Shown here: positions 57,801 to 60,983 of the stretch, piece by piece | Layout of the letters: the number at the start of each line of letters is the position of its first letter | How positions within the stretch are numbered: the first letter of the stretch is position 1 | DNA from: Nitrosomonas sp. | GTDB taxonomy: Bacteria > Pseudomonadota > Gammaproteobacteria > Burkholderiales > Nitrosomonadaceae | Direction of reading: 5' to 3' | Assembly (NCBI GenBank): GCA_024281675.1 | Contig: JAMXAG010000001.1 | Coordinates: forward strand, 248,001 to 312,000 | DNA: 64,000 bases | Position numbers and translations under genes: made by a program | Notes under the pieces: generated by a model | Told to the model about the DNA's origin: nothing | The model's input: the letters and a program-made list of their open reading frames with translations, nothing else | Databases searched by the model: none

Positions 57801-58088
57801 CAACAAACTGCACCGGTAGGTTCGTTTAAACCCAATGCCTTCGGTCTTTTTGATACTGCTGGTAATGTGTGGGAATGGACGCAAGATTGCTGGCACAGCA
57901 ATTACGACAGTGCGCCGAAAGATGGCTCTGCGTGGTTGGAAAAGAGTGGTGGCGATTGCGGCATCCGGGTGGTTCGGGGCGGTTCTTGGGGCGACAGTCC
58001 ACAGAACCTGCGGTCGGCTATCCGTTACTGGGACATCTCCGGTGGAGCCGGCGACAACCTCGGTTTTCGTATCTCCAGGGATTTTTGA
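54900..58088 (+). CDS. Large membrane protein with degenerate vWA-like region and DGR-diversified FGE-sulfatase domain
   Basis: GTG start at 54900 directly after moxR (GTG 54912 is possible). The layout over 1062 residues is: a CoxE-like helical N-terminus (FQQLDRLAALLRAEGMPSGP), membrane spans at ~137-156 and ~210-230 around a Pro-rich linker, and a vWA-like region (~270-450; ELEKRLLTLGLQVQTYRFRDDPR) in which the MIDAS DxSxS is lost. A helical region follows, then another span (LILRPALMAILLAIVTTAGF), a LytR_C-like module (NRIQYAPGGEAVAERVAQSL) and a C-terminal FGE-sulfatase domain (~835-1062; MVRIPPGKFLMGS, YRLPTEAEWEYVARAG, AGNVWEWTQD). The last 41 residues are encoded by the variable repeat VR1. 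Confidence 0.85.
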   Translation: MGNRVTDSQAAFQQLDRLAALLRAEGMPSGPDVWLSVYRLLDRLKQKDNNFPQDVDQFRLVLGPLFCRNPEEQARFKVLFEYWWVTQSDPVGLTSKDEPHNDQFTLAAHNRLASPAHAALHALHVKINKIGRAWLVGVVVLIAILMVALFVWMRQPDPIQPPPVPKPPPSPVLPEQVAQATMTIPIVDHVQPRLQPEPQLFSEDWKQWLPILSGILLLLPWVVALGWILKHYHQQWTLNRQAPSGDDLFNQLHFERVLTPIFGGAQAEQALRDLRAAKIETSNRLDVKATIEATARSGDYFCPVYRQRRIAPEHLLLVRSMHRHDQQAALAEELEKRLLTLGLQVQTYRFRDDPRWLVRWGNHDEKNTGYFRLEQLLARHGTARLFVISETDILFHPYSGEPRSWLQAFSPWQDKVWLYPHDAHSGHAGLLAKNRFLMLPLGRDSLPQLVEHLTAPHQSKPLVVQPVFPLQLPDLIAKEPDSWLEEKPPYGADLSELIKQLEYFLGSYGLRLLRAVAVYPKPHWSLTQALDYLLYGHLNSTQQIVDPPERREQRLARISRLPWLTHAYLPDWLREYLLLGMDREERARITSVWQRLFSQLTDQEGVDTLKLDVRTLSKRQLKIRLNEFRAQSHTTTLNDSIFAHILLGGNFGLLDFRLPRALARLFPQASRSLILRPALMAILLAIVTTAGFHVAWRDYGESALSQFRQNLVTSGNRDWPVSIQYQATTEALATALRDALQHIEFPVETKAADSSTSDFPINRIQYAPGGEAVAERVAQSLRWLTYGAEIDLKESSALSTNTLYVELGQTYQHLGAFNDELRHPYVTKLPFEPEMVRIPPGKFLMGSVDGSDVEKPQHEVTIAYAFEISKYEVTFAEYDHFAKATNRTLPDDRGWGRETRPVINVSFGDAQAYTQWLSQQTGKKYRLPTEAEWEYVARAGAQTAYWWGDDIGNNNAVCAGCGSSWDNQQTAPVGSFKPNAFGLFDTAGNVWEWTQDCWHSNYDSAPKDGSAWLEKSGGDCGIRVVRGGSWGDSPQNLRSAIRYWDISGGAGDNLGFRISRDF
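57965..58078 (+). repeat. DGR variable repeat VR1
   Basis: These 114 bp align without gaps to the template repeat at 59614-59727. I count 15 substitutions, every one at a TR adenine (A to G 10, A to T 5). The first 25 bp and last 20 bp are identical. It encodes the C-terminal end of the FGE domain; AAC codons of the TR have become Gly, Asp, Ile and Tyr. It is extended downstream by 40 bp shared only with VR2. Confidence 0.95.
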
Positions 58089-58118
58089 TACTTTGTTCTT
58101 TGTGCTTTGATGCTTTGT
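58079..58118 (+). repeat. 40-bp sequence shared downstream of VR1 and VR2
   Basis: Identical to 60944-60983 but absent after the TR, where the match stops at the same base. It contains the stop codon and four closely spaced CTTTG motifs. The VR/TR difference at this edge is where IMH and IMH* elements sit in known DGRs, so it may direct homing to VRs. Confidence 0.65.
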
Positions 58119-58142
58119 CGTTTATTTTTTCGGGAGGATAAG

Positions 58143-58526
58143 ATGAAACAACCCAATGCAACGAAGGCGACAGTGCCTAAAGTGGTTGAGGATTGCCATG
58201 AATTGCTGGCGTGGATCATCCCCAAATTGGATCAATTTCCACGTAACCGGCGCTACACGTTGGGAGAACGGATCGAAAGCGGCTTGTTGCAGGTGTTGGA
58301 AAATTTGATCCAAGCCGCTTATCAGAAGCCACAATCCGGTTGCTTGCAGGAAGCCAATTTGCAGCTTGATGTGGTGCGTCATCTTTGGCGGTTAAGCCAT
58401 ACGTTACAATCGATTACACACCAAAGTTATGGTCAAGGTGCCGAGCGTTTGACGGAACTTGGGCGTCAGATTGGTGGTTGGCGTAAGCATAGAGAAAACG
58501 TGAACATATCATCGAGCGTTTCGTAA
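58143..58526 (+). CDS. avd: DGR accessory variability determinant (Avd)
   Basis: Four-helix-bundle protein that forms a pentameric barrel, binds the template RNA and partners the DGR reverse transcriptase. GGGAGGA precedes ATG 58143. The 127-residue product is all helical and basic (VVEDCHELLAWIIPKLDQFPRNRRYTLGERIESGLLQVLENLIQAAY ... LDVVRHLWRLSHTLQSI), the pattern of the Avd/23S-IVP family. It is set between the VR1 target and the RT gene, 10 bases before the latter. Confidence 0.9.
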   Translation: MKQPNATKATVPKVVEDCHELLAWIIPKLDQFPRNRRYTLGERIESGLLQVLENLIQAAYQKPQSGCLQEANLQLDVVRHLWRLSHTLQSITHQSYGQGAERLTELGRQIGGWRKHRENVNISSSVS

Positions 58527-58536
58527 GTACTTCAAT

Positions 58537-59670: not shown

Positions 59671-59727
59671 CCGTAACAGGAACAACACCGATGAAGCCAA
59701 CAACAACCTCGGTTTTCGTATCTCCAG
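59614..59727 (+). repeat. DGR template repeat TR
   Basis: A 114-bp sequence matching VR1 and VR2. It holds 31 adenines, 10 AAC codons and one AAT in the target frame, so mutation at A can give many residues without creating stop codons. The first 25 bp contain no A, and the last 20 bp only two. It begins inside the last codons of the RT gene and ends 221 bp before the second target start. Transcription with avd-RT would supply the template RNA. Confidence 0.95.
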
Positions 59728-59948
59728 TACACCTGCAGTTATGCCAGAGCCGGGTGATTCAAGGATCTTCCGGGTGTGCAGCAGGTGCCCATACGCGGCA
59801 TCTCCCGGTTGTGCGGTTATGCCAACCAAAGAGGGTGCTGTGTTCGGCGGGCAGTATTTTCGCGTTTCTGCGGAAATGCTGCCTTTTCCTATCGATGCTC
59901 GTGTTTATTTTCCTAAGCAGCGATTCGCTTTATGGGGCAGGAAATAAC

Positions 59949-60953
59949 ATGGCTCCCAATAATCCATCGGTTAGGAAACAAATTCAGCAGACTCAGGAAG
60001 AAGCAAAAAAAAGTAGCACGCCGATCACCCTTGATACGACCCCGCCACTAGGTGATCAAGCTGAGGCTGATATTGTGATTACCCAGAAACTCGCGCAAAC
60101 TTGCCAGCAAGCGGGTAATAATCAAGCGCCCACCCTGGTAGCGATTCGTCCAGGACATTTTTTGATGGGGTCAGCAGATGATGAACCTGATCGTCAAGCC
60201 AATGAAGGCCCACAGCGCCTAGTTACGATACCCAAACCGTTTGCCATCAGCCGTTGTGAGATTACCGTGGGTCAGTTCCGGCAATTTGTTGAGGAAGCAC
60301 AGTACTACACCACGGCTGAAAAAAACGGCAAAGGTTGCTTAATCTGGAATGCCGACAAAAAACAGGGTGAGCAAGTATCGGAGCGCAACTGGAAGAATCC
60401 GGGGTTTACACAAACCGATCAGCATCCGGTGGTGTGTGTTTCCTGGGATGATGCGCAAGCCTATGTGCACTGGTTATCCCGGAAAACTGATGCACCGTAT
60501 CGTTTGCCGACCGAAGCCGAGTGGGAGTATGCGGCGCGCGGGGGAACCCGCACGACACGGTTTTATCGCGACAATCATCAATGCAGTTATGCTAATGGAT
60601 TGGGACAGGAAGCGCAAACCATTGCCGCTAGTGACTGGGTTCTGGCGGATTGCCGTGACCCTTATGTCAACACGGCGCCCGTCGCCAGTTTTGCGGCAAA
60701 TCCATTTGGATTGTTTGATCTATTGGGTAATGTTGCTGAATGGACGCAAGATTGCTGGCACAGCAATTACGACAATGCGCCAAAAGATGGCTCTGCGTGG
60801 TTGGAAAAGGATGAGGGAAATTGCGGCATCCGGGTGGTTCGGGGCGGTTCTTGGAACAACGATCCTCTGGACCTGCGGTCGGCTAACCGTGGCAGGCTCG
60901 GCACCGATGTTGCCGGCAACCTCCTTGGTTTTCGTATCTCCAGGGATTTTTGA
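59949..60953 (+). CDS. Second FGE-sulfatase-domain DGR target protein
   Basis: ATG 59949 is preceded by AGGA with 6-base spacing and gives 334 residues. The frame stays open upstream and encodes a hydrophobic stretch (CCLFLSMLVFIFLSSDSLYGAG), so a start at ATG 59895 or GTG 59835 would add a signal peptide; without it the protein is cytoplasmic. After a Gln/Lys-rich linker comes the FGE-sulfatase domain (~75-334): LVAIRPGHFLMGSADDEPDRQANEGPQ, ISRCEITVGQFRQFV, YRLPTEAEWEYAARGG, LLGNVAEWTQDCW. The C-terminal residues are encoded by VR2. It is likely a diversified binding protein; FGE catalytic function is not implied. Confidence 0.85.
   Translation: MAPNNPSVRKQIQQTQEEAKKSSTPITLDTTPPLGDQAEADIVITQKLAQTCQQAGNNQAPTLVAIRPGHFLMGSADDEPDRQANEGPQRLVTIPKPFAISRCEITVGQFRQFVEEAQYYTTAEKNGKGCLIWNADKKQGEQVSERNWKNPGFTQTDQHPVVCVSWDDAQAYVHWLSRKTDAPYRLPTEAEWEYAARGGTRTTRFYRDNHQCSYANGLGQEAQTIAASDWVLADCRDPYVNTAPVASFAANPFGLFDLLGNVAEWTQDCWHSNYDNAPKDGSAWLEKDEGNCGIRVVRGGSWNNDPLDLRSANRGRLGTDVAGNLLGFRISRDF
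60830..60943 (+). repeat. DGR variable repeat VR2
   Basis: These 114 bp align without gaps to the TR with 17 differences: 16 at TR adenines (10 A to G, 4 or more A to T, 2 A to C) and one C to T near the 3' end. It codes for the C-terminus of the second FGE protein. The changed sites largely differ from those in VR1, so the two repeats were diversified independently. Confidence 0.95.
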
Positions 60954-60983
60954 TACTTTGTTCTTTGTGCTTTGATGCTTTGT
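60944..60983 (+). repeat. Second copy of the post-VR 40-bp sequence
   Basis: Identical to 58079-58118. It includes the stop codon of the second target gene and the four CTTTG motifs. Confidence 0.65.

What the first reader, a model, noticed from the sequence alone, without database searches (positions are those of the whole stretch)
57965..60983. Complete diversity-generating retroelement with one TR and two VRs in two FGE-fold targets
TR (59614-59727) aligns gap-free with VR1 (57965-58078) and VR2 (60830-60943). VR1 has 15 differences, all at TR adenines; VR2 has 16 of 17 at TR adenines. avd and an RT with LPLGNLTSQF and YVDD are in between. The direction of change (A in TR, other base in VR) is the hallmark of mutagenic homing, and the two VRs carry different mutations, so both have been diversified. 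I know of no DGR described in an ammonia oxidiser, but I cannot check this.
Basis: partly seen in the sequence, partly recalled or inferred. Interest (0 to 1): 0.93.

Follow-up and report, generated by a model that had tools for sequence, protein, structure and literature searches.

The report
Immune-sensor hypermutation cassette in Nitrosomonas
This ammonia-oxidising bacterium carries a complete retroelement that rewrites the binding tips of two probable sensor proteins next to probable anti-phage genes; the system is real, but its kind, and its presence in this genus, have already been published.

Summary
TR 59614-59727 aligns gap-free to VR1 (15 of 15 differences at TR adenines) and VR2 (16 of 17), each near P 1e-10. 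Avd passes its curated cutoff; RT and two FGE-domain targets are intact. Over ten VRs in this and four orthologous loci of the genus, 172 of 174 differences lie at adenines, and the VRs follow their own genome's TR: strong evidence of repeated mutagenic retrohoming. A MoxR-like ATPase and two TIR genes lie upstream, a patatin and a TPR-S-like gene downstream. Additions: a second DGR in this genome; a TR overlapping the RT gene's end in 5 of 5 orthologs, an arrangement already in print; a trans-target TIR-FGE gene in one relative; and A-patterned VRs in 16 relatives lacking this RT ortholog. Present-day activity and the sensor role are unproven.

The parts
51870..52313 (+). TIR-domain protein, 147 aa; probable effector of the conflict locus
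   Evidence: PF13676 TIR_2 E 8.6e-33
52322..53716 (+). TIR-domain protein with C-terminal extension, 464 aa; probable effector or adaptor
   Evidence: PF13676 TIR_2 E 1.3e-25
53739..54899 (+). MoxR-like AAA ATPase, 386 aa, directly upstream of target 1
   Evidence: PF07728 AAA_5 E 2.1e-08 and PF00004 AAA E 1.9e-08; MadB_ATPase match far below its cutoff. The name MoxR-like is by analogy with PMC10907252
54900..58088 (+). Target 1: 1062 aa, long N-terminal extension with three TM-like segments, C-terminal FGE/C-type-lectin domain holding VR1
   Evidence: PF03781 at aa 833-1058, E 1.1e-59, no other Pfam family at E 0.01; hydropathy
57965..58078 (+). VR1 (variable region of target 1)
   Evidence: 15 of 15 differences from TR at TR adenines
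58143..58526 (+). avd accessory gene, 127 aa
   Evidence: NF033474 DivGenRetAVD 92.1 bits, above cutoff 80; PF22296 bAvd
58537..59670 (+). DGR reverse transcriptase, 377 aa; last 57 nt (18 codons and the stop) overlap TR in a frame other than that used in the VRs
   Evidence: PF00078 E 3.4e-20; best solved relative 8ub7 E 2.7e-39; overlap
59614..59727 (+). TR (template repeat)
   Evidence: Template for VR1 and VR2; the four orthologous TRs differ from it at 3, 6, 10 and 13 positions
59835..60953 (+). Target 2: short FGE-only protein with signal-peptide-like N-terminus if it starts at GTG 59835 (ATG 59949 is the alternative)
   Evidence: PF03781 E 6.4e-65; hydrophobic N-terminus
60830..60943 (+). 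VR2 (variable region of target 2)
   Evidence: 16 of 17 differences from TR at TR adenines
61618..62835 (-). Patatin-like phospholipase, 405 aa; neighbouring probable conflict effector, not shown to act with the DGR
   Evidence: PF01734 E 5.9e-20; PADLOC phospholipase effector model E 1.6e-42
62856..63938 (-). Protein with weak TPR-S match, 360 aa; neighbouring, role inferred only
   Evidence: PF20308 E 7.2e-05, 23.8 bits, below cutoff 27.6

Best explanation
This is a cellular diversity-generating retroelement (the stated confidence is for this identity). The RT-Avd complex copies RNA of the TR into cDNA, misreading template adenines, and the cDNA replaces the 3' ends of two target genes (VR1 and VR2). 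The non-adenine letters keep the FGE/C-type-lectin scaffold; the changed codons alter its binding face. Shown by sequence: template, targets, machinery, adenine restriction and concerted evolution of VRs with their own TR. Inferred: RT-Avd action, retrohoming and change of binding. The two targets are probably (about 0.65) sensors of a MoxR-TIR conflict (anti-invader) system: target 1 membrane-anchored, probably with its variable domain outside the cytoplasm, target 2 probably exported, binding relayed through the MoxR-like ATPase to TIR effectors. This last part is inference by analogy with PMC10907252.
For: A-restricted differences. Ten VRs in five genomes: 172 of 313 A cells and 2 of 826 non-A cells changed. 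Avd and RT matches. Target 2 resembles solved FGE-like proteins and a Treponema denticola variable protein, 2y3c, E 1.6e-7. 18 codons of the TR hold an A, none can become a stop, about 3e16 protein variants per VR. Gene neighbourhood as in the published clade 5A loci. A trans VR in G061 with 16 of 16 differences at A.
Against: No population or read data: one assembled genome per species cannot show diversification now. The inverted-repeat scan found no hairpin downstream of either VR. VR2 has one non-A change. A-patterned VRs also occur in genomes that lack this RT, so the pattern alone does not prove present activity. The sensor role is untested here and was called untested by its authors (abstract).
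Confidence: 0.95

Rival explanations
1. An inactive DGR: diversification happened in the past and the VRs are now frozen. (A rival on present activity, not on what the element is.)
For: No within-strain data. Relatives lacking this RT ortholog keep A-patterned VRs (447 of 849 A cells against 122 of 2229 non-A cells over 27 sites), so the pattern outlives the machinery. VR2 carries one non-A change.
Against: Avd, RT and TR are intact; RT is open and 71-80% identical to its four orthologs; VR1 matches TR at all 83 non-A sites.
Confidence: 0.2
2. The diversified targets serve attachment, aggregation or another ligand-binding task, not defence.
For: No experiment links this locus to phages; target 2 looks exported if it starts at GTG 59835.
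Against: MoxR-like ATPase and two TIR genes directly upstream, patatin downstream; the second DGR of the genome has a TIR-nSTAND1-FGE target; the trans target in G061 is TIR-FGE.
Confidence: 0.2
3. The three repeats are ordinary paralogous FGE 3' ends, with A-bias by chance or by selection on the protein alone.
For: Surface loops of such a fold can vary more than the core, and TR is A-rich in those codons.
Against: P near 1e-10 for each VR; 824 of 826 non-A cells, silent ones included, match the TR of the same genome although the five TRs differ from one another at 3-16 sites; avd and RT lie beside the repeats.
Confidence: 0.01

Closest known systems
DGR clade 5A MoxR-associated loci (Thiohalocapsa PB-PSB1 DGR 8 and others; Dore et al. 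2024, PMC10907252)
   Same: [quoted passage not shown] a second, short CLec-only target; TIR effectors nearby; Nitrosomonas named as a host of multiple related DGRs.
   Different: Membership of this RT in clade 5A was not tested on a labelled tree. The word patatin does not occur in that paper's main text.
Bordetella phage BPP-1 DGR (prototype; recalled)
   Same: RT, Avd, one TR, A-specific VR at the 3' end of a C-type-lectin-fold target; best solved relative of the RT is 8ub7 (that 8ub7 is the BPP-1 RT is recalled).
   Different: Order is VR1-avd-RT-TR-VR2 with two targets; TR follows and overlaps RT; the neighbours are bacterial conflict genes, not phage genes.
[quoted passage not shown] PMC3521204, passage)
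   Same: TR overlaps the 3' end of RT.
   Different: Nothing of principle; here the overlap is kept in 5 of 5 orthologs (57 or 63 nt).
VMAP ternary conflict systems (Kaur et al. 2020, PMC7159879, passages)
   Same: MoxR-like ATPase, FGE-type domain, frequent DGR association.
   Different: No vWA or VMAP domain recognised by Pfam in the nine proteins scanned.

Membership tests
Diversity-generating retroelement | TR and VR that differ almost only at TR adenines | tested here: met
   15 of 15 and 16 of 17; 172 of 174 over ten VRs in five genomes
Diversity-generating retroelement | DGR-type reverse transcriptase beside the repeats | tested here: met
   PF00078; LPLGNLTSQ motif in the sequence (its status as a DGR hallmark is recalled); groups in the tree with RTs whose loci show TR/VR pairs
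Diversity-generating retroelement | Accessory protein such as Avd | tested here: met
   NF033474 92.1 bits, above cutoff 80
Diversity-generating retroelement | VR in the C-terminal part of a C-type-lectin-fold target | tested here: met
   PF03781 at both C-termini; target 2 matches solved FGE-like proteins and Treponema variable protein 2y3c by sequence; no fold was predicted
Diversity-generating retroelement | IMH and post-VR hairpin directing homing (recalled) | tested here: inconclusive
   TR and VRs share an identical 3' end; no inverted repeat downstream of VR1, and the one found near VR2 lies inside the VR
Diversity-generating retroelement | Mutagenic retrohoming in cells | not testable with these tools
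   needs culture or population sequencing
DGR clade 5A MoxR conflict locus | MoxR-like ATPase immediately upstream of a target with a long extension and no vWA | tested here: met
   the ATPase gene ends at 54899 and target 1 begins at 54900; only FGE found in target 1
DGR clade 5A MoxR conflict locus | Second, short CLec-only target | tested here: met
   target 2, only PF03781
DGR clade 5A MoxR conflict locus | RT falls in clade 5A | not tested
   the tree holds no row labelled as clade 5A
VMAP ternary conflict system | vWA protein and VMAP protein | tested here: not met
   no vWA or VMAP match among nine proteins scanned at E 0.01; a divergent domain could be missed

The most novel reading that the evidence does not exclude
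In Nitrosomonas the DGR acts as a come-and-go generator of a receptor repertoire: one cassette diversifies local sensors and, in trans, dispersed TIR-fused receptors; the cassette is lost repeatedly, while the diversified receptors are kept in frozen form, and may spread between species, as a fixed innate repertoire.
Probability: 0.25. Interest if true: 0.6.

Novelty: new member of a known kind. Interest (0 to 1): 0.3.

Why it matters
The locus is a clear, five-genome example of template-directed diversification of putative immune sensors in a nitrifier. If a cultured strain with the cassette is at hand, the published but untested proposal that such targets are antigen sensors could be tried there. 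The genus also offers a natural contrast: genomes with the intact cassette, one with a trans target, and many with VR-bearing targets but no ortholog of this RT. That makes it possible to ask whether diversification itself, or only the diversified receptor, is under selection. None of this changes the picture of what DGRs are.

Tried and rejected
Distal third VR in the window's own genome. The TIR-FGE gene on G000:C5 looked like a trans target (87% over 67 bases). Full comparison with the window's TR gave 20 of 30 A sites but also 8 non-A differences and a 3-base deletion. It is an old or related VR, not one recently written by this TR, and I do not count it as a current target.

TR/RT overlap as a novelty. 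In a survey of 68 of the 80 loci, 53 gave TR/VR pairs and 5 were flagged as overlapping. Checking frames cut L155 to a 2-nt overlap, leaving 4; three of these are orthologs already counted (G046, G061, G022) and the fourth is a Chromatiaceae contig (L156). The 2012 DiGReF paper already defines such a group (passage). Rejected as new.

Loss of the cassette with kept targets as a novelty. The Treponema denticola paper (passage) describes target remnants in genomes lacking complete DGRs, and Dore et al. describe incomplete DGRs and trans targets (passage). A known theme; only its extent in this genus may be new.

Mobile-element origin. RT relatives on plasmids (5000 records counted, the cap) and phages (160 records) are all under 60% identity, so no close mobile relative was found there.

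Post-VR hairpin: none found. Structure prediction was not run. Wu et al. 2018 (PMC5758913) is not held, so I could not read it. In PMC10053308 six search terms had no hit. PMC8144416, PMC6642488, PMC7517822 and PMC8867640 were searched for passages only; none of the four holds a word beginning Nitros among those where I asked.

Literature searches behind the novelty statement. They cover only the open library; a description elsewhere cannot be excluded.

Rows dropped. Of 55 matches, 18 lie in the five genomes with this cassette. Of the other 37 (20 genomes), 27 sites in 16 genomes were tested; 10 were not. Two of those ten appear: 17 of 31 A and 13 of 83 non-A (L067), 17 of 32 A and 15 of 82 non-A (L076). 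One search scanned one strand only, and 6 of its 19 loci (L066, L069, L078, L080, L081, L083) gave no usable placement; the sites in G058, G057 and G035 were repeated, those in G030, G016 and G021:C14 were not. Both the search and the choice of the best of five TRs favour matches close to TR, so the low non-A count is biased downward. The weakest rows were G035:C4 (11 of 31 A, 11 of 83 non-A) and G039:C239 (16 of 31 A, 16 of 83 non-A). Twelve of 80 loci were not surveyed, and the tree used 24 of the 80. In one search, 12 of 14 loci showed A-restricted pairs; L046 and L047 did not.
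Full report
What is there. The window lies in contig C1 of a 2.81 Mb genome in 29 contigs. Three orthologous loci found in genomes that the tool puts in the same genus (G046, G061, G022) lie on contigs of exactly the lengths of three contigs recorded as Nitrosomonas sp. MAGs, so I take the host to be a Nitrosomonas. The gene order on the + strand is TIR, TIR, MoxR-like ATPase, target 1 (ending in VR1), avd, RT, TR, target 2 (ending in VR2); on the - strand beyond it come a patatin and a gene with a weak TPR-S match.

Check of the observation. 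The TR and both VRs are 114 bp, gap-free, at the coordinates given. VR1 has 15 differences, all at TR adenines. VR2 has 17, 16 of them at adenines; the other is C to T. With 31 adenines in 114, each result has a chance probability near 1e-10. Six adenines are changed in both VRs, two of them to the same base, so the two VRs have mostly separate changes. Of the 31 changes at adenines, 29 are at first or second codon positions; 18 codons hold an adenine and none can become a stop by adenine change.

Across species. RT orthologs at 71-80% identity were found in four other genomes, out of 85 of the genus searched including the window's own. In all five loci the TR and two VRs are present. Over the ten VRs, 172 of 313 adenine cells and 2 of 826 non-adenine cells differ from the same genome's TR, gap columns set aside. 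The five TRs differ from one another at 3 to 16 positions, mostly not at adenines, and the VRs follow their own TR. Length changes inside VRs occur in two relatives: G046 VR1 (three bases) and VR2 (one base), and G061 VR1 (one base). The one-base changes shift the frame at the end of the target. They could be recent copying errors or assembly errors.

Anatomy. In 5 of 5 orthologs the TR begins inside the RT gene; the overlap is 57 nt in four and 63 nt in one, in a frame other than the one used in the VRs. The RT tail encoded there is well conserved. In a survey of 68 of the 80 loci, 53 gave a TR/VR pair, and in 45 of those the TR lies upstream of the RT. The overlap is thus a minority arrangement there, but a published one (DiGReF group 3, passage).

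Targets. Target 1 has three TM-like segments (aa 135-153, 211-229, 673-691) and then the FGE domain. The charges around the segments suggest that the FGE domain is outside the cytoplasm; target 2 has a signal-peptide-like N-terminus if it starts at GTG 59835. Both statements are inference from simple hydropathy. Target 2 matches solved FGE-like proteins and, more weakly, a Treponema denticola variable protein.

The rest of the genome. A second DGR lies at about G000:C1:519.9-524.7 kb: a TIR-nSTAND1-FGE target with VR, a TR (16 of 16 differences at A), an avd on the opposite strand (78.3 bits against NF033474, just under its cutoff of 80; PF22296 above cutoff), and an RT. Its RT groups apart from the window's RT. 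These are the only two RVT_1 matches in the genome. A TIR-FGE gene on C5 has an older VR-like end. A TIR gene, an apparent ATPase and two FGE proteins lie in a row on C12, a contig with no RT match.

The genus. RT matches at E 1e-10 occur in 23 of 85 genomes; I did not sort all of them into DGR and other RTs. The 14 Nitrosomonas DGR RTs put in the tree fall into three lineages. In G061 a TIR-FGE gene on another contig (C80) has 16 of 16 differences from G061's TR at adenines and none at 83 other sites, P 2.3e-11, so it is a trans target of the same cassette. Conversely, 20 genomes without an ortholog of this RT have TR-like sequence. At 27 tested sites in 16 of them, 447 of 849 adenine cells but only 122 of 2229 other cells differ from the nearest of five TRs. 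Two of the 16, G018 and G047, have other RT matches; G018 has an Avd match below cutoff and G038 a broken one. In G017, a single-contig genome, TIR, ATPase, target 1 and target 2 stand in the same order but no avd, RT or TR was found. I read these as loci that lost the cassette and kept frozen VRs; import of already diversified targets is the alternative, and the two were not separated.

What it most likely does. By established DGR biology (recalled, and passages), RT and Avd copy TR RNA with errors at adenines and the cDNA overwrites the VRs. The neighbourhood suggests that the targets are sensors feeding a MoxR-like ATPase and TIR effectors. Dore et al. 2024 propose this for the same architecture and say that it remains to be tested (abstract; sections 6 and 13 read).

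Novelty. The kind, the architecture, the TR overlap, trans targets and incomplete loci are all in print, and Nitrosomonas is named as a host of multiple related DGRs. This locus is a new member of a known kind.

Noticed in passing
L007 (G000:C1:517000-529000), 2861-7657: Second DGR of the same genome, from another RT lineage: TIR-nSTAND1-TM-FGE target, TR at 5875-6003 with 16 of 16 VR differences at A, and an avd gene on the strand opposite to RT, an orientation also seen in G037 and G012.
   Followed up: partly
L129 (G061:C80:24000-36000), 5328-6578: TIR-FGE gene on a different contig from the DGR, with a VR whose 16 differences from G061's TR are all at adenines: a trans target.
   Followed up: yes
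L130 (G017:C1:1721000-1736000), 5239-9792: Same target pair behind an ATPase gene but with no avd, RT or TR found; VRs still A-patterned (14 of 32 and 15 of 32 A, 4 and 1 of 82 non-A). A probable frozen locus in a one-contig genome.
   Followed up: partly
L063 (G000:C12:238000-252000), 1378-7375: TIR gene, apparent ATPase (by eye, not scanned) and two FGE-domain proteins in a row on a contig with no RT match: a possible DGR-less conflict locus.
   Followed up: no
window 61618-63938, - strand: Patatin-like phospholipase (matches CBASS/phospholipase effector models, below the curated NCBIfam cutoff) and a gene with a weak TPR-S match next to the DGR, probably another conflict module.
   Followed up: no
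L049 (G083:C1:1147000-1162000), 3803-9304: Member of a third Nitrosomonas DGR lineage: an HRDC-domain protein beside the RT, no Avd match in that genome, two FGE targets with 14 of 15 and 11 of 12 differences at A.
   Followed up: partly
L042 and L043 VRs (G046, G061): One-base length changes inside VRs shift the target reading frame in G046 target 2 and G061 target 1; errors of retrohoming or of assembly.
   Followed up: no
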